64,000 nt of DNA from Cloeon dipterum (taxonomy: Eukaryota > Arthropoda > Insecta > Ephemeroptera > Baetidae). Each line of letters opens with the position of its first letter. The first letter of the stretch is position 1. The notes beneath the pieces were generated by a model. That model was not told the origin of the DNA and searched no databases. It saw nothing but the letters and a program-made list of their open reading frames with translations. The position numbers were made by a program, and so were the translations under genes. Shown here piece after piece: positions 3,690-33,527 of the stretch. The DNA lies in NCBI RefSeq assembly GCF_949628265.1, contig NC_088787.1, positions 31,546,844 to 31,610,843 on the forward strand. The letters are read 5' to 3'.

Positions 3690-4170
3690 TACGGGTTTTA
3701 CGGGAAAATGTTGTTTTAAAAACCTCAGTAACTCATCTCCCCGTGGTGCGATTTCAAAAAACATAGTGTGCTTTGGATTCCTCTCACCGAGCCCGATTAA
3801 ACTAACACAAAATTTAATGTCCTTTTAGGTCAAGGTCAAAGGTCACTGTTAATTTTTGTTTCAATTTTTAATTTCGTAAATATGCTCGGATTTTGAATTT
3901 TTTGTGTGCATTAAAGTTGTCCTACGACATGCGTGAGCATTTCTGATTTGAGTTCTTTTCCTGTTTTCGAGCTATCAAAACTCGAAAAACACGATTTGTT
4001 CGACTTTATGTCTTTTGCAAATATTTGAAATTCGGAATATGGGTCCAAACTGTCAGAATTTCAAAAACCACCCACCATTAGACTCGTCTTAACCTCCTCT
4101 GACCAGCTGAAGGGTTTATAAGAGGGTTGATTACCCTCCACTCCCAAAATGGTACGTTTACCCCCTTGAC
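3690..4170 (+). repeat. Family A repeat arm
   Basis: The block order matches other family A arms: an ACGGGTTTTACGGG start, then a CCCGATTAAA-like block, three AGGTCA half-sites (3827-3832, 3833-3838, 3840-3845), and finally the TTAGACTCGTCTTAACCTCC core near 4080. The closest ordered match is the arm at 12345-12897 read on the minus strand. Non-coding. Confidence 0.55.
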
Positions 4171-4785
4171 AAATTAATAACTTTTTACAACGCTGGATTT
4201 TATTTTATATCTTTTTTGTTTAATTCACTTTTGAAACAAGATAATTTTTTGAGTATGAGTTTTTGTAAATTTTAAATATTTTGAATCCCTGAGGATTTTT
4301 TACTCTGCTAAAAACTGTAGCAGGGGGATTGAAACGGAATCACTGGTGGGAAATTCTTAGTTTTTTTTCGGCAGGTCAACGTTGCTGATGGGCATTGTGA
4401 CACTCGCCAAGAGAGCAACAGGAGTCGCGCTGAAGGGCCACTTTGCCTGGACCTTTTGTGATTGGACTGAGCCACCACTGCACAGCACATTTTAAAGCCG
4501 GCGAGAATTCGAGTCGCACACCGACCCAAGGGGACAGTTGAAAGCTGTGCGAGAAATTCAATGGCGTTTCCAGTGGTTTACTTCTAAATACGCAGTTAAC
4601 TTTTTGCACACAGAGAAAGTAGTTTTATTTATTCTGTACAATTGTTTCGTTCAATTGTAAAATTTAAAATACTCGGTCTTAATAAATTATTTCCAGGAAA
4701 GTTCTGGCAGGGGAATTAATTTATTAAAATTATTTTGCTCACACTATTCTCTATTTCACCGAAATCGCCGTTGAGAAATCCTTGA
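4171..4785. other. Spacer between family A arms, no gene recognised
   Basis: This is AT-rich DNA with a GC-richer patch at about 4370-4560. Short ORFs on the minus strand overlap each other and show no recognisable motif. It may be the interior of a family A element. Confidence 0.3.
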
Positions 4786-4789
4786 ATTT

Positions 4790-5760
4790 TCCATATTTGC
4801 GGGTTTTACGGGCACTTAAATTTCGATTTTTGGAATTTAAAAGTTTTCTGTAAATAGGTTCAAGTTGGTCGTAAAATTTGACACCGTTGAGCTCGTCTCA
4901 TCAATAGGACAACATTCCTGTCGACCTCAAAGTGGTAGGCCAAAGGTCAAGGTCACTGAAATCGATTTTTCGTTATAGAACTCAAATTTGACAATAATAA
5001 AATATTTTTTAATTTTGAGATTGCCATCTTGTGGGCTGGATAAGTCAAAATTGGGAAATCTGGAGAGTTTTGATCTAATTTTTATTAAAAAAATAAAAAC
5101 TACAAAATTTTTAGGATTTAAAAAAAAATGTTTTCACGCTCAAATCTCAGCTTGTACCGATCAGATTTTCGAAAACTGCACAGCATTAGAATATTATTTT
5201 CCTTTCCTAGATAGCTGAAGAAGGCTGAGGGGGCCTACCCTTCAACCCCCTTTTTGCACCCCATAAACTGTAACCTTCATGGGGTTGAAAATGGGTTGAC
5301 ATATTTTGATTGTTTTCGAAATCTGTGGGAGATCCTGTGCAATGTTTGTAAATCTGATGATTAAAAGCTGAGTAAGTGTTTTTTTGGAGATAAGCATAAT
5401 CAATAACAGGTGCGACAGCTAACAAAAATCACAGTCTACAAGAGCCGCAATATTTACGGAAACTGCATCTTGCTCGACTATCATTTTCACGTTCCATGTT
5501 GCAATGAAGGAGTTCCAGGGGGATAAACTTCATGTACGGTGCAAACAAACGTTTTTTAGGGTACAAAGGGGGGTTGAACGGTTGGCACCCTTAGACTTCT
5601 CAGGCTATCTAGGGGAGGTTGAGACGAGTCTAGCATTGTGCGGGTTTTGAAAATCTGAAAACTGGAAGCTGAGATTTGGAAGTGCAAATATTTATTAAAA
5701 ACCGAAACACACAGATTTTGCAGTCGATTTTTTTCAAAATACAACCAAACAAAAAAATCT
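4790..5760. repeat. Family A repeat, second subfamily, compound
   Basis: The stretch at 4790-5290 aligns by eye with 59880-60420. Both have TATTTGCGGGTTTTAC, then a CTCGTCT block, then AAAGTGGTAG followed by AGGTCA half-sites (4944-4949 and 4950-4955), and later a CAAATCTCAGCT block with an AAAACTGCACA-like run. Further inverted core modules occur up to about 5700, including CTATCTAGGGGAGGTTGAGA. No transposase was found. Confidence 0.5.
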
Positions 5761-6760
5761 GAGACTTGTTAATTAGCCTAGTAATTTGAAATCACTAACC
5801 ACCAATGTTTAAAATTTTTTTAAGCACTTTTAACTTTTATTACCGTGGTTACCACCTCTCTCGGCTCTAACTTAACTTTCTTAATTTGGATTAAATATTG
5901 CTTTTTTTATTTGTTGGCAAACTGTTTTTTAACATGTATGTACATTTATATATGGTGAGAATAAACAAACATAATAATTAAAATTTTATGCTTATATAGC
6001 AAACCCACACGAACACAGGGATCGCAAAACCCGCATTTTTTCGGCAAACCAATTACATCGCATAGAAACTGTTTTAGCTGGTTTCCGAAATTTTGCGCAT
6101 TTTGAATGCATTTTTTCCAAAATATGGATATTAAAGTTGTAGAAGTTTAGTTCATAAATGGGAATTAGATAAATTAGCAATTATTACACCTTTAATACAA
6201 TATGAAACTATAGGCATTATTACTTGGATGCGAGGGGACAACACAGCTCATCCCCGCCTCCAGCTGCCCCCGGCGAGAACCGCTTTTGCGGCCGAAGCCC
6301 CTTTTTATACAGGGTATGCAAGCCCTGGAACGACCGCCTGCTACCAAGTTTAGAGGACTGTGACGCATCAAAATTCCCATCCCTGTGCGAGCAATTTTTC
6401 AAGTGTTTGTGAGTGTTTAATTTATTAATTTACCGCAAATTATAAAAATGTCTGGCTTTTTAATTTTAAAAAAGGCAAGATTTCAATTGTTAAAAAAATC
6501 TAAGCTTTATCCGAGGAAAAACTGAACACACTTGACGGTTGTGATGAGTGTTTTCCCAAATATAACCGAAGATAATGCTTCTCCCGAAACGGCCAAAATA
6601 TTTTGACCAAGAACAATAGTAGACAAAGGAACAGATCATTCCAAAATGCCCAATTAGGTTGGTTGAGAGCAGCGATCTCGGCTCATCACGAATGAGTGAG
6701 CGTGAGGAGGCGTGCGTGCGTCGGGGGCGGTGGAGACATGCGCTCGGGGGCGGTGGAGGC
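5761..6760. other. Intergenic DNA upstream of the CCHamide-2 gene
   Basis: AT-rich except for a GC-rich island at about 6225-6380 and the promoter-proximal GC-rich block from 6655. The island has overlapping ORFs on both strands and no recognisable product. It may be regulatory. Confidence 0.3.
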
Positions 6761-6805
6761 GGCTTTTAAGGCAGCGCCGGCGGCCGTGCGGTCTCACTTG
6801 CTCCG
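6721..6805 (+). promoter_or_regulatory. Candidate core promoter and leader of CCHamide-2
   Basis: A GC-rich block contains a direct repeat of CTCGGGGGCGGTGGAG-like sequence, then a TATA-like TTTTAAG at 6764-6770, then TCTCACTT about 25-30 bp further on, which could serve as an initiator. The start codon follows at 6806, so the leader would be very short if this start site is used. This is inferred from position only. Confidence 0.3.
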
Positions 6806-9800
6806 ATGGCTTCCACCAGCAGTCTAGCCGCACGCGTTCTCCTGGTGCTGGCGGCCGTGGCCGCCTTGGCCACTGCCAAAAGTAAGTGAACATTTTTGCC
6901 TCTCCAATTTGAAAAATTGCACCTTTATGCACCGAAAAAGGCATTACCTGATGTAAATTATATTTCCTCCGATTGAGAGTTAAAAACGAACTAAAAAAAT
7001 ATATATAAAAAAAAAATTATTGGTTCTTTAGTGAATGGTATTTTTTTCAGTTTGCTCTCAACTGTTGCATGAAAAACCGATCCAATCTGCTTTCGACCCT
7101 TTTTAATTTTAAAAAAAGGTCTGCCAGCGTTTGTCATGAGTCATGACGCTTTCTATTCGAATATTGACTATTGTATTATCAATTTGCGTCAGAAACAGGA
7201 CAAAAATACCACGCATCATTTTTTGTTTTGCATTTTGGAGGGTGACTGCTGCTGTGCCAAAGAAACGCATCGAGAATAAGTCTATTTCGTAGAAAATTGT
7301 AAAGCTATTTCTAGGCGCATTCAACAATCACACTCATACGATTTATATTTCTATAATGTGATGAGAATTCAATGAAGCGTAACTAGAGACGGAGTAGGTG
7401 TAGGGTAAATAATACCCTCTAGACACGTTATTGTAAGTTACATAATCAGAAATACGAGAGCGAAGTATGAACAACTTTTTTTGTTTCTACTTCTGCATAG
7501 AGCACGTGCAGCGAATTTTAATGCTTTGAGATCGTCATTCCTGATCTGCTTGTTCTATATTGTCTACAGATTAGAGAGTTTGTGGGGAAAAATGAGAAAC
7601 TGAACAGTATCATAATATGCCTTAATTTGCAATCCTCTCACAGCTCTTCTCCAGCAATTAGGGCATTTTTCCAGATTAGGGTTTTTACTACCGGAAATTC
7701 ATGCAAAATAATATCGTTTTTTTGCTACCAAAATTATGACAATTTTCCAAATAGAAGCAGAGTTTTAATTTTTTCTAAGATGGGTTGCATTAACTCAAGC
7801 TTCATTTTGGACAATTAAATATTTTCTGGGAAATTGGGAGAGGAATATTCCTCCAGAACTTGTTAAAAATTAGAATTTGCCTAAATTTTTGCACTCGAAT
7901 TCAACATTTTAAAAAAAAAATTGTTTTCAAAATGATTTTGAATCAAATGACCAGCGATTGGAAAAGTGACGTTAATCGCGCCTGTTGCAAACAGCAAATT
8001 CACATTTTGGATTGAATAAATTCTCTGGTGGCAAAGTAGTGCGTAAAACGCATCAAATATTTCGACAGTTAAACAGCTCTGACGGCCGGGGAATGAGTGT
8101 GCAGCTACTAAGCGCGTGATTTGATTAGCGCGACACACACTCACTCTGCCCGCGCGCGATATTATTCAAATCAATTGGCTCTCCGCAAAATTTTAATCAA
8201 ACCGGAGAGCTCCTTAAAAGGACAAATGCGACACATTTCGCTCGATTAATGAACGCGTCAGGCGAGAGAAGTGTGTGTTGCTAAAATTTGCATACAGCTT
8301 TTGTTTGTTCACCAGGCAAATTGTGCTTGGCGTAAAAGCGGTATGCTATTTTCCTTATTTTGATTGCCACTGAGCGTTCGGAAACCACGTTCTGGATTGA
8401 AATCGTTAAACATAATTGCGGTCAAACTCTAACTGAGCACTTTGAAGTTTCGTCATAATTTTACCTGATAACTGAGCCTACGCGCTAGAAACCAATTTGT
8501 GCGGATAGTTCGAAGTTCGAAGTACATTTTTTTGGTACGGAATGTAAGCCCGGAAATTAAAACCAATTATTAGAGCAGAAAAAAGCTTAAATTAGCCCAA
8601 ATATCTTAACTTTCGTCATCAATTAATTTTAATCATTTGATAATAATATTAATACAACATTCAAAACGAAAAATTTCGGATTTTAAGTTAGTCTCGTTGC
8701 GTTAAAAACTTCTTCCTTTGGTATTTCAATCCGAAAAGTTTTGTTTTTAATTATTTAATATTTGGACAGACCACCAAATAAAACTTTACCGCTGAAACTT
8801 GTCAGAGGGAAATATTAAACGAGGATAAAGTCCGTTTTAATTACAATTTGGAACAACTAACCCCGAGTGTCGACATTTCAACTATAATTAATCATCTCGT
8901 CTATCCTAATTTTAAAACAAAGCGACGAAAACAAGACGAATCACATTTGTAAATTGCATTATATTATTTCTATCCCACTTTAGCAAGGACGCTTATGTCG
9001 ATCTTGAGGATTGATTGAGATTGCACAATTAATATAAAGCTGAAAATAACTGACGTGCGCTTTAGTTAAGAAATAGACTCAAATCAATAAACCAAACACG
9101 ATTTTAATTTAGCAAATAACAACTTTCAAATTTCAGCGGTCATTTTCTATCAATAAATGCTCTAAATCAATGCCAAACTGTAACATAAATTGCAGTTTTA
9201 AAAGTTTTGGACCTGTAATGGACCAAATTTTGATAACTGGGAAGACATGACAATTTTTACAGTTTAAAATAACTAATTTGATAATTAAAAGAAGTCTTCA
9301 AATCAACAAGTTTGGCCAAAATCTTTACTACGAACTTTTTGAATCAGTACAATTTCAACTAAAATTAAAACAAATATATGGACAAAATGGAAAAATTAAC
9401 CTAACCAATTATTTTTAATTAGATTATAGAATTTGATCTCCTGGAAAATATTAGCTCCATAGGAATAAATTTATATTCATATATGTCTATTATTGTTAAC
9501 AAACATTCCGTAGATGAAAAAACTGGAGTCTATGTGTGATTAAATAATTCGACTCTGTCGAAAAAAATCAAATTTTGCGCAAAATGTTCAATTTTAAAGT
9601 AAAGCCAACAATTACGGAAATTTTGCATTGTTGGCAATAGCAAGAAGTGGTTCGTTGAGCTTTTGTTTTGTGAAATTTAGGGACAATTTACCTCTACAAT
9701 GAAGTCAGGAACAAAGAAACAGTTAAATTTCAAATTTTGCCAAATTTGTCGAAAAATTAAATGATTTTTTCGCTTGATTTCGATTATTCTCCCGTCGCGA

Positions 9801-12800
9801 TCTATTCAATAGTTGGTGAATTTTGAGGTAAAAGTCCCTAAACTGTGATTTAAATCGCAATTTTACAATAAAGAGACAGTGTGAACTTGCAACTTGAATT
9901 AAAGAGCCCCGCCGATATATTTTCACCATTTGTTCAGCACACTAGAGGCTAAATTTTACGCTATTTCAAGAAAGAATCTGAGGCTGCACATTTTGAGATA
10001 CTTTTGATTCAAGAAATTACGTGCCAATTAGTGAATTTAAACTTTCAACTCATAAATTCTCGATACTTCAAAATTTCTAACAGCGACTCGAGATTTGCAA
10101 AAATCCCCCTAATTCCCGACAACTATTAGCAATTGGCATTAAAAGACTCATAAAAACACACACTATATTTTTAGTCTGTAACCACAGCATTCATGATGTT
10201 AAATTGTAGATAAGCGCGCATCATCACAGATTAAAACAATACCCTTTTGTAAATGCAGCACATCGTTAATATTGCCCATACGTCCTAATGGAAGCGCCAC
10301 AGATGAAGAGTGGGAATTTTTTATCACCTTTTACCTGCCAGCACGCGCATACAATGCTTTTTTCATGCCCATATACGTTTCCGAGTTTTCCCAAGCCATG
10401 CTCGAGCGCCCGAGAGCATGCGATAGATCCGAGCAAAAAAGAGTATATTATACGAGCGAGGGAAAAAGCTGCAAGGTTTGAAAGACAGAGAAGCAGGCCA
10501 AACAGGTGGCAGGCACCATTTGTTGAATTGAGTCTCATTTCATAAATTGCAAAATGACAGCGGCAGCACACCGGCAGGGCGAAACAAAAAGCGGCAGCGC
10601 TTTTGTGCCCGAAAATCCCACGCCAATTTCAACAATCGACTCAACCTGCCCCCTGCCCGCTATAAATCTCAATTGAGCAGCCCCTCCTCGCGCGCTCGCA
10701 CTTTTTATTTTGTATTTTCGCGTCTGAAACTGAAAGAGCAGGACTGTCTCCCGTTTCAGAAGGGCGGAAGGCAATCCAGCGGGAACGCTTACTTCGCAAT
10801 TTTGTGATGAATTAAAATTGCGCACATTTTTTATGTTTTCTGTGGAAAAGTCGATTATTTTCAAATTAAAAAATAAACAAGTAGAGTGTAAATCACGGGT
10901 CGTAAGATGGTTTCGGGAGTGTCAAGATAATCTGACGAAGACTTTCATTTCTGAGGGCTTTGCGGGATATTTTTACTAAATTTTGAGAATACAATAACTA
11001 AATTTAAAAGTAATAAGGTGTGCGCTGAACTCCTCTCGTCATGTCCGATCGAATGCACACCAAATTTGAGGTCATCGGTCAAGGTCAAAGGTAATTTTCC
11101 AACATTTGTTTTTTTAGGATTTTGAAAATCAGTGCCATACTTTAAAAATCCGAAACGCCCCTTAAAAGTTGTCTCAGGGTACGTGTGAACTTGTGTAAAA
11201 ATTTCTAGGTGGTATTTTGCGTCGTTTAAAATTTTGAAAAACCCAAATTTTAAAATTTTTGCAAATGTTGCGATCGCCAAATCTCGGGTTCTAATGGTCA
11301 GAAATTAAAAAACTGCACACCGTTCGACTTGGCTTGACTTCCCCTGGCGAGCTGTATAATTTTCGGGGTGCTCACCCCCACGGGCCATAATTTCACCCCC
11401 TATCTGATTTTTTTAATCCGTCACACTTTTCCTTCCAACGGTTGACACGTGCAAATTGATTATTTACTCTTTCGAGTGGAAAAAAGCACTGATGGTTGTC
11501 AGCAGAAGAACTAAACTCTCATCAAAATATATTATTTTTGCACATGACCAATTTTGGGCAAATTCCGTTCAGATAAAATGAGGCGATCCGGTGGAGCGAG
11601 GGGCCGGCCGAGAATATTAATTCGGCGCGGTCTTTTCTGCTTTTCCCGCCACCACTTTGCGACCGTGCGTGCGATATAAATGCGCGATTGGAAACGTGCG
11701 AGCAAGCGAGCGTGAATAAATACACGAGCTGCGGCAAATGGAACGAGCGGCACACAATACGTGTGCTATATGGGTGTCTCCTGATGCAAACATTTGCCAT
11801 TGAGAAGTTCACAAAGCGCGTAGGGAGTCGGATCGGAATTCCGATTTGCGGTCTTTCTACATACACCTTTCCTAATCAAACCCACCGGCATGAGTTCTTC
11901 CGCGCCCGAAACCACCAATTAGCACAAATTGATACTCCGACAGGCGTCGTTATTCAATTCCAATCAAAAGCGATATATAGTGAAGTGATTGATGAAAATA
12001 GCTCACAGCCCTTTGCCAAGTTAGAAAGTTGTCCTCTGCTGATCCAAAGGTCAACAATTAGAACTAAACGGAAACTTCTTCTTCGTCGATTCTCGTGTGG
12101 GCTCAGCGCTCCACCTCAATGGAAATATATCGCAGTGTTTGAAGTTCACTGCTTGTTTATGCTCTCACCTTGGAGAATACACCACCGCAATTTTGTCAAA
12201 AAGGCAAGGCAAACGACGTTGAAAAGGGTCTCGACTAAAAATACATCCGACGGGTTGCGTTGTGAGACTCTACCACCTTGCGAAGAGAGGAAAAACAGTT
12301 CATTAGTGCGGTTGAATAATAAAAAAATAATAACAATGAAATTATGGCCGATAGGGGTTTAGGGTTGAGGGGCGAGCATCCCAAAAACTATACAGATCGC
12401 TAGGGGAAGTCAAGCCAAGTCGAACGGTGGGCAAGTTTTGCATTTCTGATCTTCTGAACCCGAGATTTGGCGATCGCAACATTTGCAAAATTTGAGTTTT
12501 CGAGATTCAAATTTAATTTTTTGAAAATGAAACCAAAAACCACCTCGAATTTTTACACAAGGTCACACGTACCCTGAGATTAATTTTGAATGACATTTCG
12601 GATTTTTAAAATTATGGGGTTGGTAAAAAACACCCAAAATTTTTGGAAAATGAGCCTTGATGACCTTTGACCTCGATCGGTGACCTCAGAGTTGGTGTTC
12701 ATTCGATCGGGCTTGACGAGAGGAGTTTAAAGCACACCTTAACTTTTGATATGAGTTATTCGCCCAAAATGTTCCGTAAAACCCGTAAAAATGAAAGTTT

Positions 12801-15800
12801 TGACAATGTTTCTTTGAGTTAAGACTGATCGATGGTTTTAATTACTTCAGATTATCTTAACACCACCGAAACCGTCAACCTACGACCCGTGATTTTCGCT
12901 AAAAATGAAATTAGAAATAATTCAACTGTCCACAAAAATTAACTGTAGCATTTTTATAAATAGTTCTACATTTTCTTGTGAAAATTCATCTAAACTAAGT
13001 TTAAATAAAAATATCAGGATATTTTCTGAAAATAAGCAACATTTCAATTGCATAACCTTCTTGAAAATGAAAGCTATTTTAGGATTTTCAGTGTTAATCG
13101 TTTTTTCTAATGTTGCCGATTGTTTTGGAATACATTTATTTTTAATTTATAGTTTCTTTGTTTAATAAAAATAGAATCTTCACGGCCCTAAGTATACGTG
13201 AATTTCCTAAAGAAATTGGAATTAAATACTTGCAGCTGCTTTTTTGTGGCATAATTATATTTCACCGTTTTATCACATTTTAAACATTTCATTTGTTCTG
13301 ATTTTGACATAATCTTTTAAAAATTGTCAGAAATATATCGGGGGTTGAATTTTGCGTGCGTGCAGTTGATGTGTGTTAAATTCGGTCTTTTAGTGGCCAT
13401 TTTTCATATTTCAAAGGCGCGGTCACGGCGAAAACGAGCGGTGCTGTCAGTCTTCGCACCCCCGCCTTCCTTTTTTCCATTTTCCATTAGCCGGCTTCTT
13501 TCTCTTCTCGGAAAAAACACTAACTGCAGAGTGTAGTGCAAACATTTCGGAGAGAGCAGATTTCAGACCAAGAAACTTGATGTTTCGCAACGCACTATAC
13601 ACGTGTCGTGCTCCTTTTCTTGAGTGCGCGACAATTCAAACAGCCGGGATTCCCGAAAGGGGAGAATGATTGTGGTGTTAATTCTCTATCTTTAATTTTC
13701 TCGAATGATTCTTTTGAACGGTGCCAGCAAAAAAAGGGAAAAAATTATTACAGAAATTCAGATAGTTATTATAAAAATCAAGCGAATGACTTCTGGATGA
13801 AGGTGTGAAGTTATCTTTATTAATTCTCTAAAAATTTTAACAAAAATATCAATTTGTTGAAGTTTATCTGGATTTTTAAAGTGATAAAGTATGAGTACTT
13901 TTGTTGCTCGACTGTAACACCAAGAAGAGTGGAAAGACGGCACATCATTTTTCAAAGGTTTATCACTTGGAGAATTGCTTGATGAGTTTGTCGCAATTCC
14001 AGAAATGGCATGCTTTTAAAGAGGAATCCCGCTAAATCCCGGAAAATGCTTGTTGCGAATGTATGAACTCATCCCTTAGTATTGTTGAAGCTAAAATTTA
14101 CTTAAGTTAATTACAGAGTAAATTTTTGAGAAAAGTGGCTGCAAAGTTAGCATGCTTTTCAAATGGCCAGGACTGTCTCCTTATTCTAAATCCTATTTAA
14201 TTTCTCAACGAAGAGTTTCCCCAAAAGGTGTCATACATTTTTGAATAGATCTCGACGAGAGAAATCGAAATCTGCCAAGAAATAGTGGTCAACATAAGTG
14301 TTGTAAATTTTGGATAAAGTTTGAAAAATTGGAATTGTTACTGTAGCAAGGTCCTTTTTTGAATATCGCAAATTGTTTATCGATCAACTGCTTATTACAT
14401 CTAACAATCCAAATAATTTTCAATGCTTGTCCTGTATCGATCCATTTGAAGGACTTAAAGATTTTATCTCTACGTAATGAATTAAATTTTGGCAATGTGT
14501 TTCATATCCAGCAAGAAAATCGAAACTATATTGCAAATCCACGTCTCCAAACTAGCAATTTCGTGTTAGTTAGTGAGCTTATATCTTTTGGAAATCAAGT
14601 TAAGTCGGATTTCATTCAATTGTGGGCGAAGTTTTGATTGTCTTCATGCGCGAACGAGGTAACTTGCTTTCTCGCCTACGCGCGTCACCGTTCATTTAAA
14701 TTGGCGCCAAGCAAAGTGCAAATTCGACACACACGTCACTCGCTCGCTCACAACATTCAGATTTGATCGGCACTCACTCGATCGAAAGCATTATTGCGGC
14801 GCCGCCACCCTTTATGAGCCATTAATTTGTAATTGCACTCGCGCGGCGTTCTCGTAATAATTATTTCTCTTTCTCTCTCGTCGTGTTTTTGATTTTTCCG
14901 GCTCGCCGCGTTTGTTTGTCACTTTTGTTAACTTTGTAATTAGAAAACTTCTTCTTGCCGCGGCTGCAGTGTCGATTTTGCGACTTTTGCGTAATCCCTC
15001 CCCTCGCGGCGGGCGCTATTTCGCCGGACACTGACGCAATGCGCCCACAGCTTTTCAAATGTTAAAAATGTGATTAAGAGACAGAATTTTTAATGGGCTC
15101 AAATGGCAACACTTTGTGGATTTTTGAAAGCGTTTCTGCTTTAAAGACCACTGGGAGTCAAACGTTTTTAGCGTGAATTGAAAGTTAAATTCTGTTCTAA
15201 ACTGCGCATATCGTTAACCTATATATATATGCCCGGTGTTTTCACACGAGTTACAATAAAAAACTGGTGTTGGTATTTTGCGATAGAAGAGCTTTAACTC
15301 TTAAGTCAAATAACCCGCTCTTTTTGCGTTTCTGTAAAAAGTCAACTATTTTTGGACTGTTTTCCAGAGCAATTTAGTCGGGTTTTTTAATAACTCTCGC
15401 CTTTGGAGTCGACCCCCGGGGAATCTGATCTGAAGAAAGAAAAATATTTTAAACAAAAAATAATATTTATTTTATGAAGTTTAATGCAAGTCCGGCTTAC
15501 TTTTAGTGGAGTTACAGGCCGGTGCTCCTGTGGCTGTATGTGCGCAGCAGCAATGCCGGGCATAGATAATAATTTAAACAATAGAGGTATGCAATGCAAA
15601 AAAAAACTAATAAAAAAATTAAGCAAGGGATGCATAATTTAGAAAAAATAATGTGATTATAATAATAACTTTATTTGACGTTCAAATCTATGTAATTCTA
15701 TAACAATTCATGTGCTCCCTTAGACAGCCCATGTGTTTTAGGTTTTACCTTTTCTCTCTTTCTCTACAAAGGGTAAAATGGGGTAGTTCGGGGTAGGTTT

Positions 15801-23892: not shown

Positions 23893-25092
23893 CACGGGGT
23901 AAGGCTCTAAAAGGGGTCGCACTTTATTCTCCCTTCCACGCGTGCCGCCTGTGACATCAGCAACGGAGACTCGGCCAATGAGCCAAAGGTGTCAAATCCT
24001 TTATTATTGGTCGGCTGGGCGTCGGAAATTGCATGAATTTAGTAGCATTCAAAAGCTACGCTCTTCCTCGACCAAACGCAACAAAAACGACATTCCGTTC
24101 TCGTTCAGGAGCCGCGCACACAGCGAGCAAAACGACGTCGGAATTTGATCTGTAATCCCACATGCCATGAATATCATTTTCTGCTCTGGGAAATTAAACG
24201 AGCTTTCCAGTGATTTTTTTTGCTCTTTTTATCCCTGTCCGAGGACCGGGAAGGGCGCGCACTGCACTGGCACGAATGCTGAAACCCGGGTGCCAATAAC
24301 ACCGCGAACGGATAACATGGGCGCGCAGGGCCCACTCAAGGGCCACTTGCCTCCGCACCGAGGACTGCATTGAAACGCTATCTAGACATTCGTCCCGTGA
24401 AGCCAAATCACGCATGCTGGAAAGGTGCAAACCAGCAAGTAGCGAGTCGGCGCCGGTGCGCCTCCCAGCCTGTCGAGCAATTTGAGCATTTCGAGTCACT
24501 AAACTAACCACTTTTGCAATGCGAGCCAACGAGCTGGTTTGGGAAAATTAAACGAGCTTTCCAGTGATGTGATTAAAAAATTTTGAAAATAGTTTTTTCA
24601 AATATCGATATTTTTTCAACTCCAAGTCTCGGGTTCTATTAACCATCAGAATTGCAAAACCTACGCGATCACCCCTGACGAGCTGAAGGGGTGCTTGCCC
24701 TCCGCCGCTTTTTTACTTTTATCGCTGGGGTTGACGAAGTATAGCAACTTAGGGGTGGAGGGTCGGCACCCCTAAACCTTCCAGTTCGTCAGGGGAGGTC
24801 GAGTTTAATCGTTGCAATAATAACGATATTTGAAAAATTCCTTTTATCTAACATTTTTCTGCGCGGAGATCGCTATTATTTGGAAAGTTTGAGGCCAACA
24901 AAATTTGTTAAGCACACTACTGGAAAGCTGGTTTAATTTCCAAGAAAATGATGATGATAAGTGGGGTTACAGATCAAAATTCCGACGTTGTTTTGCTCGC
25001 TGTGCGCGGCTCCCGAACGAGATTTCGTTTTTGTTGCGTTTGGTCGAGGAATAGTGTAGCCACTTCTTTTAGAGCCTTAGAAACACCCCGTG
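23893..25092. mobile_element. Non-autonomous inverted-repeat transposon with 10-bp TSD
   Basis: The element starts CACGGGGT and ends ACCCCGTG (with one further C before the final run), and is flanked on both sides by the identical 10-mer ATATAAACGT (23883-23892 and 25093-25102). The arms share AAGGCTCTAAAAG, CTCGACCAAACGCAACAAAA, GAGCCGCGCACA, GCGAGCAAAACGACGTCGGA and AACGAGCTTTCCAGTG, and meet near 24725. The inner halves are related to the 28794-30477 hairpin and so to family A. The left arm is longer because of extra segments, including 24215-24540. No transposase was found. A 10-bp duplication is compatible with Mutator-like elements, but the superfamily is not proven. Confidence 0.8.
24188..24568. 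repeat. 27-bp direct repeats around a 326-bp GC-rich insert
   Basis: The sequence GGGAAATTAAACGAGCTTTC(CAGTGAT) at 24188-24214 recurs almost unchanged at 24541-24568. The 326 bp between them are GC-rich and absent from the right arm of the same element. A minus-strand ORF of 111 codons crosses it without recognisable motifs. The structure suggests insertion or template-switch capture inside the transposon. Confidence 0.5.
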
Positions 25093-25945: not shown

Positions 25946-28367
25946 ATGGCGTTGGGGAAAGACGTGGCCGCCTTGATGCGCGGCCTGCAGCTGGTGGCCA
26001 AAGAGGCGGCCAAGTTGGGAGAGGCCGAATGTGCACGCCGGCTGGAAAACTCGAGCATTCGGGCCCTCTTGAACACGGAGGGTAAGAAGCTGAGCCAATG
26101 TCTGGCCGAGGCAGTTTCAACACCAAATTTACAGGTATGTACATCTACATAATTTATTGACACTAAATAATTTTAAATTCAATGCAGGATCGAATCGGCA
26201 AGGCTGCAGTTGAGACTGCAGAGAGGTCTCAAATGGTTGTGGAAGGACTCCGAGCGATGGCCTCGCACTACGCAGGAAAACCTTGTAGGTTTTCTTCAGG
26301 AATGAACTACAAAATAAATCTAAAACAAAAAATTAAATTTTAGACACTGCATCAGGGGGTGCAGCTCAAAGTTTGGAATCTCTGCAGGGTTTTAAAATTC
26401 CGGATGACCCGTTTGGGACGTTTCAAGAGTCGTTTGAAAAAATTACGCCAGTGAAAAATGAAGTCAAGAAAGATGAGCGAATTGTGAAAAGAACACCACC
26501 AAAACCGGTCGAGGAAGAACCAAAAGTTCCAAATATTCAAAAGCAATCGGTCAAAACTAAACCAAAAGTGAAAACAACGGTAAACACACTCGGTTCATTT
26601 TTGAATGTGGTTAAAAAATAAAGTTTCCTCTTTCGCAGCTGAGTGAAAACGCAAAACAACGAGCCGTCCCGTCGACTCGCATCGGCCGCTTGATATCCTT
26701 TGGAAGTCTGGCGGCCGGTCTTGGTGTTGGCACTGTGGCTGAGGCTTCGAGAAGAGCTCTGGGCCTGGCTGAAAAAAGTGGTCCAGTATTGGATGCCAGC
26801 TCCTTTCTCAGCGAGGCGAATGCTGAGAGAATCGTCAACACTTTGTGCAAAGTCAGAGGTGACCTTGAAAATTTCCTATTAATATCATTGGATCATTTTG
26901 CTAACTAAACAGGAGCCGCTCTGAAGATTGGACAAATTCTTAGCATTCAGGACAACAGTATCATCAGCCCTCAACTGCAAAAGGCCTTCGAAAGGGTTCG
27001 TCAGTCTGCAGATTTCATGCCGACCTGGCAAGTTGAAGTGAGTACATTTTTAAGAGATTAAAATTGTAATTACGCATTTGTTAAAATTTGGTATAAATAT
27101 ATATAGTTCAAATTTTAATTTTTCTATAAACAAAGTAACACAGAATCCTTTCGACGCCCTGTTTTTCCTTGCAGAAAGTGCTAGCGTCTGAGTTTGGGTC
27201 TGACTGGCGCTCTAAGGTGGCCTCATTTGAAACAAAACCTTTCGCGGCCGCCTCTATTGGGCAAGTGCACCTGGCGACCCTGCACGACGGCACGGACGTG
27301 GCCATGAAAATCCAGTATCCAGGCGTAGCAAAGGGAATTGAAAGCGACATCGACAACCTGGTGTCCCTTCTCAAAGTGTGGAAGATTTTCCCTGAAGGCT
27401 TGTTCATTGACAATTTGGTGGAAGTGGCTAAAAGGGAGCTGGCCTGGGAGGTCGACTACGAGCGGGAGGCGCAGTGCACCAAGCGCTACAGAGAAATGAT
27501 GGCCCCTTACCCTGAATACGTCGTGCCGAATGTTGTTGGTAGGGAGTTTGTTAAAATTATGTTAAACAGTTTTTTATTGTTCAATTGGTTTAGATGAGCT
27601 CTGCACGAAGCAAATTTTCACCAGTGAGCTGATAAGTGGAGTGCCGGTTGACCAGTGCGTAAATATGGACGAAGAGACGAGAAAGAGGATTGCAATGCTC
27701 ATTATGGAACTCACCCTGAAGGAGCTCTTTGAGTTTCGATACATGCAGACCGACCCGAACTGGTCCAACTTTTTCTATGATCCTGACACAGGAAGGGTAA
27801 TCAAAATCTCAGTTTATTTTAATATTATCATATTATATGCAGATACAATTTTAAATTTAATAATTTTCTTGCTCTCCTTTCGATAATTTAAAAAAAAATC
27901 GAATTTCCTCCTGTCTGATTAAATCAATAATTAATTTCCAGCTGTGTCTCTTGGATTTTGGCGCCACGAGAGAATACGACAAAGCCTTCATGGATATGTA
28001 CATCCAGGTTATCAAATCGGCAGCCGATGGAGACCGCGAGGGCGTGCTGAAAATGTCCCAGGCGATGGGATTCCTCACCGGCTACGAGTCGAAGGCCATG
28101 GAGAACGCTCACGTGGACACGGTCATGATTCTCGGGGAGACTTTCCGGTCGGACGAGCCTTTCAACTTCGGCCGGCAGAACACGACCCGGCGAGTTCAGT
28201 CGCAAGTGCCGACCATGTTGGCGCACCGCCTCTGTCCGCCGCCAGAGCAGATTTATTCGCTGCATAGAAAGCTGTCTGGTGTGTTTTTACTGTGCGCCAA
28301 ACTGAATGTAGCTATTTCCTGCAGGCCAATGCTCCAGAGAGTCTGGCTTGATTACAGATTTGGCTAG
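25946..28367 (+). CDS. COQ8: Atypical kinase COQ8 (ADCK3/4 family), mitochondrial
   Basis: Member of the UbiB/ABC1 atypical kinase-like family. In animals it sits in the mitochondrial inner membrane/matrix and supports assembly of the coenzyme Q biosynthetic complex through ATPase activity. Exons are 25946-26134, 26188-26284, 26344-26579, 26639-26858, 26913-27037, 27175-27538, 27594-27796 and 27942-28367; all phases agree, giving 619 residues, close to animal COQ8 length. Family landmarks are the KxGQ motif KIGQ (about 252-255), the Ala-rich loop AAASIGQVH (about 313-321) in place of a Gly-rich loop, the VAMK lysine (about 334), TDPNWSNF (Asp about 464, Asn about 469) and DFG (483-485). The N-terminus is an amphipathic helix with few acidic residues at first, consistent with import. 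Reading through the GTGTGTT after 28275 gives the family's usual C-terminal LHRKLSG...LLCAKL segment, so no intron is placed there. Confidence 0.95.
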
Positions 28368-28793
28368 TTTAGCCACTTGTTTTGCTTCGATAATATGTGA
28401 TAATATTTAATTTATTATAGAGATAAACTGGTGCTGTAGATTTATTAAAAAAATTTGTATAAAAATCATTTTCTTACCGTTTTATTATGAATTTCTTTTA
28501 TACTCTGATACATTTTGTTGAAAATCTAGAACCATTTTTCTATTTTCCCGCCTGATTCCTAAATTCTGGGACTTTCTCGTAGTAAAAATAAAATTTGTAT
28601 ACCATCCAGTATTATATAGAGTACGCAGAGTAAAAGTGTGTCATCACAAATATCATGAAAATTAGATTTATAAGTTCATTTTGAATATATTTTACTACGT
28701 TAAATCCCTCACAATCAGAGATGCCGGCGAATTCTGAAGACAGTATAGCAGTGATTGTCTTGGAAGAGTGGAGGAATTCCCCATCTGACATAA
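28368..28793 (+). other. COQ8 3' UTR / intergenic
   Basis: AT-rich. AATAAA at 28587-28592 is a possible polyadenylation signal for COQ8. Nothing else was recognised before the inverted repeat begins. Confidence 0.4.
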
Positions 28794-30477
28794 GACGATT
28801 TTCGCGATAGGATTAAGGCTAATTGTCAATTTTTTCCGACTTTATTTGCCCATCCTGAATTTTACATATGTTGTTAGGGATGTTTCATAGTGTGTAACCT
28901 GAAATTTTGAGCAAAAAATTCGGGGGCTTTTGTTGGGAAATCGCGATTTTCGAAAATTGAAAACTTCAGATAGTAAATCCGAAATATCAAGGTATCTTCG
29001 GTCCAGATTGGAATTTCGATGTGGTTTTTTCACCTCCAGGCGTAACTTTTTGAGTAGAACATGTTTGCCATTGATCAAAAATTTGTAGGTCAAAGGTCAA
29101 GGTCACAAATTCGCATGCCAAATGTTTGGTTAAAAATATCGCAAAATACGCCCCCTCGGATTTTTTTCATGAAAACGTAAAAAATGTAGCCCTGAATGCG
29201 TAGAATTGAATGGTGAAGAGAAATCGATGGGCACTCTCATAGATCGCGAGATATATTGAATTTAAGGATTCGTGTCGAGCGTCCGGCACGACGACAACAT
29301 CATCCGCCGATTTTACTTTCGTAATTTACGTCGCAATTTGATCTGTAACCCCACATGTTATGCATATGATTACCTAGAAAAATAAACGAGCTTTCCAGTG
29401 GTGTGTTTAAAATTTTTCTTGGTCTCAAACTTTTCAAGTAATAGCGGCGCGCGAAAAGAAAATATAAAATTTTCAAATATTGACATTTTTGCAAATCTCA
29501 AAACTCGGGTTCTAATAATCAGAATTGCAAAAACTACCCACCGTTGGACTCGTCTCGACCTTCCCTAACCAGCTAAAAGGTTTAGGGGTGCTTTTACCCC
29601 CTACCCCTAAGTTTATATACTTAAACCCCCCTTAAAAAAAAGTAAAAAAAGTGTAGCATCTTAGGGGTAGGGGGTAAAAGCACTCCTAAACCTTTTAGCT
29701 GGTTAGGGTAGGTCGAGACGAGTTCAACGGTGGGTAGTTTTTGCAATTCTGATGATTAGAACCCGAGTTTTGAGATTTGCAAAAATGTCAATATTTGAAA
29801 ATTTTATATTTTCTTTTCGCGCGCCGCTATTACTTGAAAAGTTTGAGACCAAGAAAAATTTTAAACACACCACTGGAAAGCTCGTTTATTTTTCTAAGTA
29901 ATCATATGCATAACATGTGGGGTTACAGATCAAATTGCGACGTAAATTACGAAAGTAAAATCGGCGGATGATGTTGTCGTCGTGCCGGACGCTCGACACG
30001 AATCCTTAATTTCAATATATCTCGCGATCTATGAGAGTGCCCATCGATTTCTCTTCACCATTCAATTCTACGCATTCAGGGCTACATTTTTTACGTTTTC
30101 ATGAAAAAAATCCGAGGGGGCGTATTTTGCGATATTTTTAACCAAACATTTGGCATGCGAATTTGTGACCTTGACCTTTGACCTACAAATTTTTGATCAA
30201 TGGCAAACATGTTCTACTCGAAAAGTTACGCCTGGAGGTGAAAAAACCACATCGAAATTCCAATCTGGACCGAAGATACCTTGATATTTCGGATTTACTA
30301 TCTGAAGTTTTCAATTTTCGAAAATCGCGATTTCCCAACAAATGCCCCCGAATTTTTTGCTCAAAATTTCAGGTTACACACTATGAAACATCCCTAACAA
30401 CATATGTAAAATTCAGGATGGGCAAATAAAGTCGGGAAAAATTGACAATTAGCCTTAATTCTATCGCGAAAATCGTC
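28794..30477. repeat. Near-perfect long inverted repeat (two 817-bp arms)
   Basis: The arms 28794-29610 and 29661-30477 are reverse complements with no indel (the coordinates sum to 59271 throughout where checked) and only scattered substitutions. They are separated by a 50-bp loop. Mirrored ORFs of 83 and 64 codons in the two arms differ at only one to two residues each. Both ends read GACGATTTTCGCGATAG, and the four bases ATAA occur immediately outside each end, a possible target duplication. The inner arm carries family A blocks and AGGTCA clusters (29087-29105, mirrored at 30166-30184). It has no transposase and is non-autonomous. The small ORFs are not considered genes. Confidence 0.9.
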
Positions 30478-31101
30478 ATAACCATGCAACGTGTGCTGCT
30501 TGGTTATGTTTATGTGATTTAGAGTAGAGTAAGGAGAGTCTCCTTAATTTAGAGTCCTAAAGGACTCTAATGTGATTGCATGCGGAATAGGCAATTGGAG
30601 GGGGAAAGAGTGGGCGATATATCATTCACTCTTCTCCCTCCACTCGTAAGGGGCAACCTTTCTGCGTTTCTCCGCTCTTCACACTACTCCAGCTGGCTGG
30701 AGGGAGGAGGGACTGGTTGGCGGACGGCTTGACAGAATTTTAAATTTGAATACTGTTAGCGCAAGCGCAAAAACCAAATGGAAAAAAATATTGATAAAAA
30801 GTGAAAAAACGAAAAAGATAAATCAGCTTGTTTAATCTTATTTTATATTTTTTATTGTTCTCATCACATTATATCATTTAACAGAGTAAAAACCTGAGCT
30901 AAAATTTTTTAAATAAAATAACCTGCATTTTGTCCATGCTCTGAACGTCATCTGAACTAGTCTCAACACGCTGCATTGGTATGCAGAATGCAAAAATAGT
31001 TGAGTCGAGCTGTTGCAGAAGTGCAGCAGCAGCACCGTCGCTCGCTGCTTTCGTTTCGCTAGTGACGTCACTCTGCGAGTGACAGTCAGCACCAGCAGCA
31101 G
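30478..31101 (+). promoter_or_regulatory. FBXO33 upstream region with CRE
   Basis: A palindromic CRE, TGACGTCA, lies at 31063-31070, about 30 bp before the FBXO33 start codon and set in GC-rich sequence with CAGCAGCAG runs. Further upstream there is a perfect short hairpin (TTAGAGTCCT at 30549-30558 against AGGACTCTAA at 30561-30570). No TATA box was seen in the proximal part. Confidence 0.45.
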
Positions 31102-33527
31102 ATGAGCAGGCGAGAATCGGCGGAGTTGGGCAACAAACAAATGGCTGGGCAATGGGAACGGGTGCCCAGCGTCGTTTTGCACGAGATTTACCTGCTGTTG
31201 CCGACGGCGGACCAGCTGCGTGCGTCGGCGACATGTCGACACTGGCGTCAGGTGTTTTACCAGTCGTTCTCGCCCTCCAAGGTCACCCTCAGGGTGCGCG
31301 CGGGCGACCAGAATAGCTGCGAGCGCAGCATCTTCCTGGCCAGCTGCTGGGGCAACAAACTGCGCCACGCAGTCACCGAATTCGACTCGGCCAAGGACGG
31401 CGTGGCCGAAATTGTGGCCGACCTGCTGCTGCTGCTCGCTGAAAAGGGCTGTCAACTCCGCTCGATCGCCCTGCGCCCCTCGTACTGTCGCCTACTCGTG
31501 CCCCATCGACAGCCCACCTTCCTCGACAGGTACGTTCTCGCCGCGACATTGACATTCCAGGGTGGTTTTTGCGTTTTTTAGCCAATGACGCGTTATCTTT
31601 TAAAGTTGTAACATTGTTCTCGGAGAAATCTGCTGCGCGGTGCGAATTTCATTTCGCGCACATAGATACACGTTGTATGCACTTTCTCCTGCTTGTCATC
31701 GAGTTACACCGCTGTATTTGCGTTGCAGAATTATTTATGGATGTGAAACTAATTAAAAAGAAAGAATGAGTGGCACACTTTCCGGTAATTTCCTGTTTAT
31801 TTCTGCTCTGAACAGGCGAATAATGGAACCTCTGCGAAGCATAATTTCAAAAAGTAAGCGGCTCGAATTAGTCAACCTAGGCGGTCTCGAGGACCTGGCA
31901 CCGTACCTGAGCGAGCTGTTGCAAGTGCTGGCCGTGTGCCACGGCAAACACCTGCGAACCCTGCATGCCAACACCCTGAAAGCGATTCCTCAAGTCTACA
32001 AGATATACGACCTGGATCCAGGTCACTTCTCCAGGTTCACCGCCCTGACCGAACTTAGTCTTGACTACGACTACTTGACCGATAAGATGCTGCAAACTCT
32101 CTCAGGTCAGGGCAAGGACCTCAGGGTGCTGAATGTGTTCGTGCATGGCGTCGACGAGGACTTGCTGCCGCCTTCGAACCAAAGCTGGACAGCTTTCAGC
32201 AAACAAAAGTGAGTTTTTAAAGGATATGTGCGTCGAAAAAATTTTAATTGGATATTTTAAGCTAAAAATTCTGAAAGTCTGAGTGACGTGTGAATTTTTT
32301 GAATCGGTCTCCGCGTTGAGCCATTAAACACTAGACTAAGGGAGCGGCCATGTTGTGACGTCATCAGTGTCATGGCCGCTGATGTTCATTCAGGTTTTAA
32401 AAGCATGATGGCTGAGTTAGTAAAATTGACGCATCCCTGAGGAATGATGACGTCACATGATGACCAGCGCTGAGACTGATTCCAAAAATTTCAAAACTCA
32501 TTTTTAATGGCTTTCATGAATGTCGGAAAACCTTTAAATTTGTTATACAAATGCTGAATGTCAGGGTGGCGTTGGAATTGTTGTGAACAAAGTTTGCCGC
32601 TTTCTTTGATAGCGCTTGACTGCTTAACGGGAAGACTTGCTTCAAAAATTCCAACGGCATTCTGATTTTCAGAATATTCTACTCCCCTCAAAAAAATTAT
32701 TTTATTTAAACCTACATTTCCTTTAATATTCAAAATTTGACAGTGAAAACTGTGAACTCCGGCTGTGCTTGTTATTCTCCTGCGAAGCGGTTGAATTCCT
32801 TTCCTCTGGTCTTCTGCAACCTTCAATGCCACTGACCCAGTTGAAAGTTCTATTTTGTGAGATGGTGCGTATCTTAGAGAATTTAATATATTTTAAAATA
32901 ATAATTTTTAAAATTAATTCATCAGATCAGTGTAGAAGCGTTGCATCTGTTGTACGACTGGTACTGGTCAAAACTGACCAGCCTCTGGTGGATCGACGTG
33001 GCGGACGAAAATGCTCCTCTCGACGCGCTTGAAATTTCCTTTGGGCAGCCGCATCCTCTGGTTATGGTCGCTTGGCGTTGTGTCAACTTGCGCGAGCTCG
33101 TTGTTATCGGTACTCAAGCTCGCATTGTCAAAGGCACGCATTTCATCGCTTGTTTATAGGTTATGATCTGTTGGATGACAACATTATCGCTATCTCCCGA
33201 CTCAGAGGCGCACTTTTGAAACGCCTTGACATTCCTGAGAGCAACATTTTCTTTGACGAAATTCCAGATGGCTCGCCGCATGATGCGAAAGTCAAGGTAT
33301 TCATTTTTACTTCCTTGATTTTAAGAAGTTAAAAAAGGATGATTGGTTTACATTTTGAAGCCAGAAAGAATAATTTTTTTATTTTGTTCCAGCTGGTTGA
33401 GGAAGTGAGTGATTCGTTGCAGCGAAAATGGGCGCCGCTGTCAAACAAAGACATGCCGGCAGCTCTGGTCAACCCGTCGCTGGAAAGTGCCATCGAGTTT
33501 GCGCTGGCCTGCACGCAGCCGCACTAA
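31102..33527 (+). CDS. FBXO33: FBXO33-like F-box/LRR protein
   Basis: Substrate-binding adaptor of an SCF (SKP1-CUL1-F-box) ubiquitin ligase; vertebrate FBXO33 is reported to target YB-1. Exons are 31102-31529, 31816-32208, 32744-32864, 32926-33109, 33160-33296 and 33393-33527; phases agree, giving 465 residues. The F-box lies at about residues 20-55 (VPSVVLHEIYLLLPTADQLR then ASATCRHWR), followed by leucine-rich-repeat-like segments. The C-terminal part has HPLVMVAWRCVNL and NIIAISRLRGALLK, which correspond to DPLVLLAWRCTKL and LIAIARLRGSDLK as I remember vertebrate FBXO33; that similarity decides the family. A second in-frame ATG (31141) could also serve as the start. It lies between a large hairpin repeat and p66 on the same strand. 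Confidence 0.88.
32266..32510. repeat. Small fold-back element in FBXO33 intron 2
   Basis: Inverted segments are present: TGTGACGTCATCA at 32354-32366 against TGATGACGTCACA at 32445-32457 is an exact 13-bp match. The outer parts (TGAATCGGTCTCCGCGTTGA near 32299 against GCGCTGAGACTGATTCCA near 32468) are imperfect complements. It is a MITE-like hairpin that carries two CRE-type TGACGTCA sites inside the intron. Confidence 0.5.

What the first reader, a model, noticed from the sequence alone, without database searches (positions are those of the whole stretch)
28794..30477. Almost perfect 817-bp-arm hairpin between COQ8 and FBXO33
Two 817-bp arms are collinear without indels and differ at few positions, with a 50-bp loop. 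Arms this long and this similar are either very young or kept alike by gene conversion. If transcribed, the RNA would be a long duplex, a natural substrate for Dicer-2 and endo-siRNA production (hpRNA loci in insects). The arm contents link it to a family of more diverged elements elsewhere in the window, so the siRNAs could target many copies in trans.
Basis: partly seen in the sequence, partly recalled or inferred. Interest (0 to 1): 0.75.

Follow-up and report, generated by a model that had tools for sequence, protein, structure and literature searches.

The report
Palindromic jumping-gene copy beside COQ8
The long DNA hairpin is one copy of a family of jumping genes found across the genome; each is almost wholly two mirror-image arms, the arms of a copy seem to stay alike by copying each other, and damaged copies usually break at the hairpin tip.

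Summary
The hairpin is real: two 817-bp arms, 10 differences, about 50-bp loop, at 28794-30477. It is not a one-off locus. It is a complete copy of a dispersed, non-autonomous, foldback-type DNA transposon, flanked by a 4-bp target-site duplication (ATAA). Copies share exact ends, and 31 of 34 two-ended copies examined first have 4-bp duplications. A second subfamily differs in its outermost 19 bp.

In 21 full-length copies the arms of one copy differ by 1.6% on average, arms of different copies by 5.4%, and left/right identity is lost. In 22 of 29 copies the two arms are sisters in a tree. The arms therefore evolve in concert, with patchy tracts in some copies. The window copy is average (1.2%, median 1.24%), and its differences look like ordinary mutation since insertion.

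Of 37 part-armed copies, 29 have a breakpoint within 40 bp of the loop (4.6 expected): an arm is erased from the hairpin tip outwards.

No transposase partner was found. Expression and siRNA could not be tested. Diverged relatives in the window share no 19-mer with it, which weakens the local siRNA-target idea. Nearest known kind: two-TIR and solo-TIR Galileo/foldback elements. The tip-anchored loss looks new to me, on a limited literature search.

The parts
28790..28793 (+). target-site duplication, left copy (ATAA)
   Evidence: equal to 30478-30481; 4-bp duplication in 31 of 34 two-ended copies, 13 of 1122 mismatched pairs
28794..29610 (+). left arm (arm a), begins GACGATTTTCGCGATAGG
29611..29660 (+). 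asymmetric loop, recognisable in both subfamilies; gives the orientation of each copy
29661..30477 (-). right arm (arm b), inverted, 10 of 817 positions differ from the left arm
30478..30481 (+). target-site duplication, right copy (ATAA)
24055..25060 (.). diverged relative: palindromic element carrying the same inner-arm segment, with a retroposon-like insert in its left half
10885..12900 (.). diverged relative: foldback element, arms 10885-11378 / 12369-12900 (71%), 990-bp middle, inner-arm segment shared
27139..28364 (+). last exons of the upstream ABC1-kinase (COQ8-like) gene; not part of the element
   Evidence: Pfam PF03109
31066..31578 (+). F-box exon of the downstream gene; not part of the element
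   Evidence: Pfam PF00646

Best explanation
28794-30477 is one insertion of a non-autonomous, transposase-less DNA transposon family whose whole body is a palindrome. Shown: shared precise ends, 4-bp target-site duplications, two subfamilies, dozens of copies on all five large contigs, within-copy arm homogenisation, and deletions anchored at the hairpin tip. Inferred: a transposase supplied in trans moves it by cut-and-paste. When a copy is broken or its excision gap is repaired, one arm is re-copied from the other (arm-to-arm gene conversion), which wipes out left/right differences. If repair synthesis stops at the hairpin tip and the ends are simply joined, a one-armed or part-armed copy results. 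The window copy is an ordinary member, average in arm divergence, lying between two genes.
For: Dispersed copies, 40 scored of 1370 first-look candidates. End motifs: 79 places (subfamily 1) and 104 places (subfamily 2), both with 0 control hits. 4-bp duplications in 31 of 34, 2 of 3 and 8 of 9 two-ended copies. Within-copy arm divergence 1.56% against 5.43% between copies (21 copies); 0.65% against 2.03% (8 copies of subfamily 2); 0 of 20000 permutations reach the observed value in either set. Distances a-a, b-b and a-b between copies are nearly equal. Arms are sisters in 22 of 29 copies. Private variants present in both arms of one copy: 68 and 32. Patchy arm identity: 8 of 16 tested copies at p<0.05, 2 of 16 after correction (L023, L034). 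Tip-anchored breakpoints in 29 of 37 informative part-armed copies, 4.6 expected, and in 19 of 26 found by the end motif alone, 3.3 expected. In 11 of 12 copies examined the junctions show 0-5 bp overlaps or single inserted bases, as in end joining; L056 has 13 unaligned bases. The two arm ORFs scanned give no Pfam hit.
Against: No autonomous partner or transposase was found: the one long pair of like ends in the listed places, 8.9 kb (L051), shows only a reverse-transcriptase match. 7 of 29 copies do not have sister arms (L010, L029, L030, L034, L041, L043, L045), and 8 of 16 tested copies show no significant patchiness. 8 of 37 part-armed copies break away from the tip. Homogenisation at transposition and conversion in place cannot be told apart without the same insertion in relatives. 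Tip breakpoints could in part reflect trouble reading or assembling palindromes, though no N occurs in the 82 loci.
Confidence: 0.85

Rival explanations
1. A dedicated hairpin-RNA locus: the palindrome is transcribed and diced to endo-siRNAs, and its arms are kept alike by selection for a duplex.
For: A transcript would fold into a duplex over 98% of its bases (MFE -1492 kcal/mol). 27-73% of the 21-mers of the 28 other full-length copies compared match it exactly.
Against: The same hairpin lies at dozens of sites with target-site duplications. The window copy is average in arm identity (1.22%, against median 1.24%). No 19-mer is shared with the diverged relatives in this window. Selection at one locus does not explain alikeness across the family.
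Confidence: 0.07
2. Arms are renewed only at birth: transposition or its gap repair makes both arms of each new copy from one arm, and after that the arms drift apart without further conversion.
For: The window copy's differences are evenly spread and its private variants lie in one arm. Several copies have almost identical arms (0.12-0.37%: L009, L013, L015, L016, L024, L037, L039).
Against: L023 has a 602-bp and L034 a 426-bp identical run beside dense differences (p = 0.0002 each), which whole-arm renewal does not give; recombination with other copies could.
Confidence: 0.35
3. The one-armed, tip-broken copies are artefacts of sequencing or assembly at palindromes.
For: Long palindromes are hard to clone and assemble (recalled). 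The breakpoints sit at the loop.
Against: No N in the 82 loci. Of 12 tip-broken copies that keep both ends, 11 also keep the 4-bp duplication (L011, L028, L033, L044; 7 of 8, L056 not), and their outer endpoints differ. 32 copies of full length with both ends are assembled (29, the window among them; three).
Confidence: 0.12
4. Assembly duplicate of a single arm in the window (no real hairpin).
For: none found
Against: 10 differences between arms, an asymmetric loop, a target-site duplication, and sister copies of the same architecture.
Confidence: 0.01

Closest known systems
Galileo two-TIR, solo-TIR and chimeric copies in Drosophila mojavensis (PMC3573991; passages read)
   Same: long TIRs make up most of the non-autonomous copy; TIRs of one copy 98-100% alike while subfamily means between copies are 92-97%; solo-TIR copies common (64 of 170); chimeric copies with unlike TIRs and mismatched duplications (as L029 here)
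   Different: 7-bp duplications and a P-superfamily transposase there; 4-bp duplications and no transposase found here; in the passages read no anchoring of deletions at the hairpin tip is reported
Tetris, a foldback element of Drosophila virilis (PMC4079207; passages read)
   Same: foldback structure, no coding capacity, TIR repeats grouping together in two of three complete copies with homogenisation suggested
   Different: Tetris has 8-10-bp duplications and internal tandem repeats; no tandem repeat was found in this element
Sola2 elements (PMC3627910; passages read)
   Same: 4-bp AT-rich duplications (AWWT there; 7 of 31 here are AWWT, A first in 20 and T last in 18 of 31)
   Different: 12-13-bp TIRs there, 817-bp arms here; no Sola2 transposase identified here
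Palindromes of mammalian sex chromosomes (PMC8981503, PMC3723533; search listing only)
   Same: arm-to-arm gene conversion keeps arms alike
   Different: large host palindromes, not a dispersed transposon; no sign of GC bias here (W>S 24 of 60 changes in both arms against 31 of 84 in one arm)
Insect hpRNA loci (PMC10317233; search listing only)
   Same: long inverted repeat able to give a duplex RNA
   Different: here a dispersed transposon, no RNA evidence

Membership tests
Non-autonomous TIR (foldback-type) DNA transposon | many dispersed copies with identical ends | tested here: met
Non-autonomous TIR (foldback-type) DNA transposon | target-site duplication of fixed length | tested here: met
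   4 bp in 31 of 34, 8 of 9, 2 of 3
Non-autonomous TIR (foldback-type) DNA transposon | long inverted repeats forming most of the element | tested here: met
   817 + 817 of 1684 bp
Non-autonomous TIR (foldback-type) DNA transposon | no transposase gene of its own | tested here: met
   longest stop-to-stop ORF inside an arm 84 aa; the two arm ORFs scanned gave no Pfam hit
Non-autonomous TIR (foldback-type) DNA transposon | an autonomous partner with the same ends | tested here: inconclusive
   no long pair of subfamily-1 ends in the lists; one 8.9-kb pair of subfamily-2 ends (list cut short by the tool) without a recognisable transposase in the 10 ORFs scanned
MITE as defined in iMITEdb (PMC5199201, passages read) | length under 800 bp | tested here: not met
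   1684 bp
Galileo / P superfamily | 7-bp duplication | tested here: not met
   7-bp match 0 of 34
Tetris / Mutator-type foldback | 8-10-bp duplication | tested here: not met
   8- and 9-bp match 0 of 34; 10 bp not counted
Sola2 | 4-bp AT-rich duplication | tested here: met
   AWWT strictly in 7 of 31
Sola2 | Sola2-type transposase in an autonomous relative | not tested
   no Sola2 transposase profile was searched
hpRNA locus | transcribed and diced to siRNAs | not testable with these tools
   no RNA data
hpRNA locus | a locus of its own rather than a dispersed repeat | tested here: not met

The most novel reading that the evidence does not exclude
The palindrome renews itself by snap-back synthesis. 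During gap repair or replication, the new strand copies arm 1, the loop and up to about 40 bases of arm 2, folds back on itself at the hairpin tip, and primes a fresh arm 2 from arm 1. Successful events make both arms identical. Failed ones leave the tip-broken copies, i.e. one full arm plus loop plus a stub of up to 39 bases. Synthesis running past the end into the flank would give inverted flank copies, as the 113 bp of mirrored flank beyond both ends of L051 might show. One process would then explain arm identity, loss of left/right history and the deletion hot spot.
Probability: 0.2. Interest if true: 0.7.

Novelty: new member of a known kind. Interest (0 to 1): 0.42.

Why it matters
Long near-perfect palindromes are usually unstable (recalled), yet this transposon keeps them at dozens of sites. 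The family is a natural experiment on how inverted arms are kept alike and how they are lost: 29 complete copies compared for conversion, 37 informative broken copies for the place of breakage, and duplications that fix each insertion site. It also warns that a near-perfect hairpin in raw sequence need not be an RNA-interference locus, and that arm identity cannot be used naively to date such insertions, because arms are reset.

Tried and rejected
Autonomous partner: end-motif pairs further apart than 1.7 kb were looked for by eye in the lists (the list was cut short by the tool; end motifs with more mismatches were not searched). One pair of like ends facing each other was found, C2:7976140-7985057 (L051). 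It has inverted repeats of about 557 bp reaching 113 bp beyond the element ends, and of 10 ORFs scanned 1 gives a match, RVT_1. Rejected as the autonomous element. A pair of unlike ends 9.7 kb apart (C1:23595297 subfamily 2, C1:23605041 subfamily 1) was followed up only at its right end: L066, an arm cut at position 473. A 2-mismatch end at C1:35766716 was not followed up.

Rfam on the window: 0 matches. GC-biased conversion: no clear difference. Gradient of arm divergence from end to loop: within/between ratio 0.13-0.45 in subfamily 1 and 0.14-0.63 in subfamily 2, highest in the bin next to the loop in both; not tested for significance. Duplicated insertion as a test of conversion in place: L052 and L053 proved to be separate insertions, matching only within the element; the C5 array (L048-L050) lacks a full pair of arms. 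Duplication sequence just after the junction of one-armed copies: looked at by eye, inconclusive. Literature on arm conversion in palindromic transposons; the tip anchoring was not seen in the listings or passages read, which is a weak negative. The host species was not identified.

Rows dropped: 11 of the 40 scored copies (L011, L012, L017, L019, L021, L025, L028, L033, L038, L040, L044) lack part of an arm and were left out of the arm comparison. L052-L054, fetched later, were not added to it. L071, L079 and L081 were left out of the breakpoint count (cut by the edge of the fetched stretch; the script had counted L081 as informative and so printed 29 of 38). L048-L050 counted once. L051 not counted (it would be a non-tip case). 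At least 14 further unpaired ends were not fetched. Eleven of the 37 breakpoint copies came from the arm search, which favours copies with one intact arm; the 26 others did not. The breakpoint numbers per copy were entered by hand.

Full report
OBSERVATION. In 27500-32000 there is one long inverted repeat, 28791-29622 / 29649-30480 (832 nt arms, 98% complementary). Cut to the boundaries that other copies share, the arms are 28794-29610 and 29661-30477, 817 bp each, 10 differences and no indel, with a loop of about 50 bp.

WHAT IT IS. A search of the window's own assembly (190 Mb, 10 contigs) with the left arm scored 40 of 1370 first-look candidates and found 75 matches of 75-100% identity (the window's own two included), mostly as mirrored pairs about 1.68 kb long, on all five large contigs. 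Aligned, the copies of each subfamily start and stop at the same bases. The end motif GACGATTTTCGCGATAGGATTAA, up to 2 mismatches, occurs 40 + 39 times, with 0 for the reversed control. A second subfamily shares the body but has another outermost 19 bp, GTGTGTGTTCRGGAGTCTT; its end motif occurs 50 + 54 times, control 0. Immediately outside the ends lies a 4-bp direct duplication in 31 of 34 two-ended copies; lefts paired with the wrong rights agree in 13 of 1122. Of the lengths 5 to 9 only 6 occurs, once (L035). Of the three exceptions, L020 differs at one base, L035 has the 6-bp duplication, and L029 has neither. The window copy has ATAA on both sides. Later copies: 8 of 9 (L056 not) and 2 of 3 (L053 not). 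So the hairpin is a transposon insertion. No coding sequence was recognised: longest ORF in an arm 84 aa, two arm ORFs without a Pfam hit.

ARMS EVOLVE IN CONCERT. The loop is asymmetric and recognisable, so each copy can be oriented. If the two arms had simply been inherited, all a arms should resemble each other more than any b arm. Instead, in 21 full-length copies of subfamily 1 the a and b arms of one copy differ by 1.56% on average (median 1.24%), while between copies a-a, b-b and a-b distances are 5.44, 5.40 and 5.43%. In 8 copies of subfamily 2 the figures are 0.65% within and 1.90, 2.11, 2.03% between. In neither set does any of 20000 random pairings reach the observed value. Six columns split consistently between a and b; from the per-copy lists these are columns 828-833, where loop residue was left at the end of the alignment. 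Later tests use columns 1-815. In a likelihood tree the two arms are sisters in 22 of 29 copies (17 of 21 and 5 of 8); the exceptions are L010, L029, L030, L034, L041, L043 and L045. Variants private to one copy and present in both its arms number 68 (subfamily 1) and 32 (subfamily 2, 21 of them in L047), against 110 and 26 in one arm only.

PATCHES AND CHIMERAS. In 16 copies with at least 6 substitutions between arms, the longest identical run is longer than random placing gives in 8 at p<0.05 and in 2 after correction (L023: 602 bp; L034: 426 bp; both p = 0.0002); the other 8, the window copy among them, show no significant patchiness. This fits conversion tracts in some copies, or exchange with other copies. 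L029 has arms 6.4% apart that group with different copies and no matching duplication, as expected of ectopic recombination between two insertions. Chimeric Galileo copies with mismatched duplications are described in PMC3573991 (passages read). The window copy shows no sign of conversion since insertion: its 10 differences are evenly spread (p = 0.50), 7 private variants are in one arm and none in both. Its arm divergence is about the family median.

LOSS FROM THE HAIRPIN TIP. Many copies lack part or all of one arm. Mapped on a complete copy, 29 of 37 informative ones have a breakpoint in the loop (9) or within 40 bp of it (20); uniform breakpoints would give 4.6 (tail 1e-20). Among the 26 found only through the end motif, and so not selected for an intact arm, it is 19 against 3.3 expected (1e-12). 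In 26 of the 29 one arm is whole and is followed by all or part of the loop and up to 39 bases of the second arm; in L048, L064 and L072 neither arm is whole. What comes next is either the outer 19-689 bp of the second arm with its end (12 copies, 11 of them with the 4-bp duplication) or, in most of the rest, sequence not matching the element. Junctions examined in 12 copies (L055-L064, L072, L073) show 0-5 bp overlaps or single inserted bases in 11; L056 has 13 unaligned bases. The 8 non-tip cases are L017, L057, L065, L066, L067, L069, L070 and L078; L051 would be a ninth. No N occurs in the 82 loci.

MECHANISM. Shown: mobility in the past, concerted arms, tip-anchored loss. Inferred: cut-and-paste by a transposase in trans, and repair of a broken arm from its partner. 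The tip is where repair synthesis stops or where the extruded hairpin is cut. I favour arm-to-arm conversion during break or gap repair; renewal of arms only at birth is a serious rival. The bolder reading, snap-back synthesis that rebuilds arm 2 from arm 1, would explain both the alike arms and the stubs of up to 39 bases, but rests on inference.

PARTNER AND CLASS. No pair of facing subfamily-1 ends lies further apart than 1.7 kb in the lists. One long pair of subfamily-2 ends (8.9 kb, L051) stands in the list, which the tool cut short; of 10 ORFs scanned in it one gives a match, to reverse transcriptase. A 4-bp duplication does not fit Galileo (7 bp, PMC3573991) or Tetris (8-10 bp, PMC4079207) and agrees with Sola2 (4 bp, AWWT, PMC3627910; passages read), but no transposase was identified, so the superfamily stays open.

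RNA INTERFERENCE. A transcript would be paired over 98% of its bases, so dicing is possible if it is ever transcribed, which I cannot test. The diverged relatives in the window share mainly the inner part of the arm, at 67-92% identity, with no exact 19-mer; siRNAs from this copy would match them poorly. They would match other family copies better (27-73% of the 21-mers of the 28 compared).

VERDICT. It is a new family of a known kind of element, with an unusually clear record of arm homogenisation and tip-anchored arm loss.

Noticed in passing
window 24191-24568: A roughly 330-bp insert (about 24215-24544) that begins with a run of T and is flanked by a 24-bp direct repeat (24191-24214, 24545-24568) sits inside the diverged palindromic relative 24055-25060; it looks like a retroposon (SINE-like) insertion.
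   Followed up: partly
window 10885-12900: An older foldback element with arms 71% alike and a 990-bp non-palindromic middle; shares the inner-arm segment with the finding.
   Followed up: partly
window 4005-5739 and 60254-61147: Further weak inverted repeats carrying the same inner-arm segment; probable old relatives.
   Followed up: no
L048, L049, L050 (C5:2556800-2576300): Three closely similar element fragments 8-10 kb apart in the same orientation: the element may lie inside a tandemly repeated stretch.
   Followed up: partly
L051 128-684 and 8714-9267: Inverted repeats of about 557 bp, 98.9% alike and 8 kb apart, hold the outer 445 bp of the subfamily-2 arm and continue about 113 bp into the flank on both sides; a reverse-transcriptase fragment lies between (6610-6975).
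   Followed up: partly
L029 (C3:12053929-12055613): Chimeric copy: arms 6.4% apart grouping with different copies, and no matching duplication; a possible rearrangement breakpoint.
   Followed up: partly
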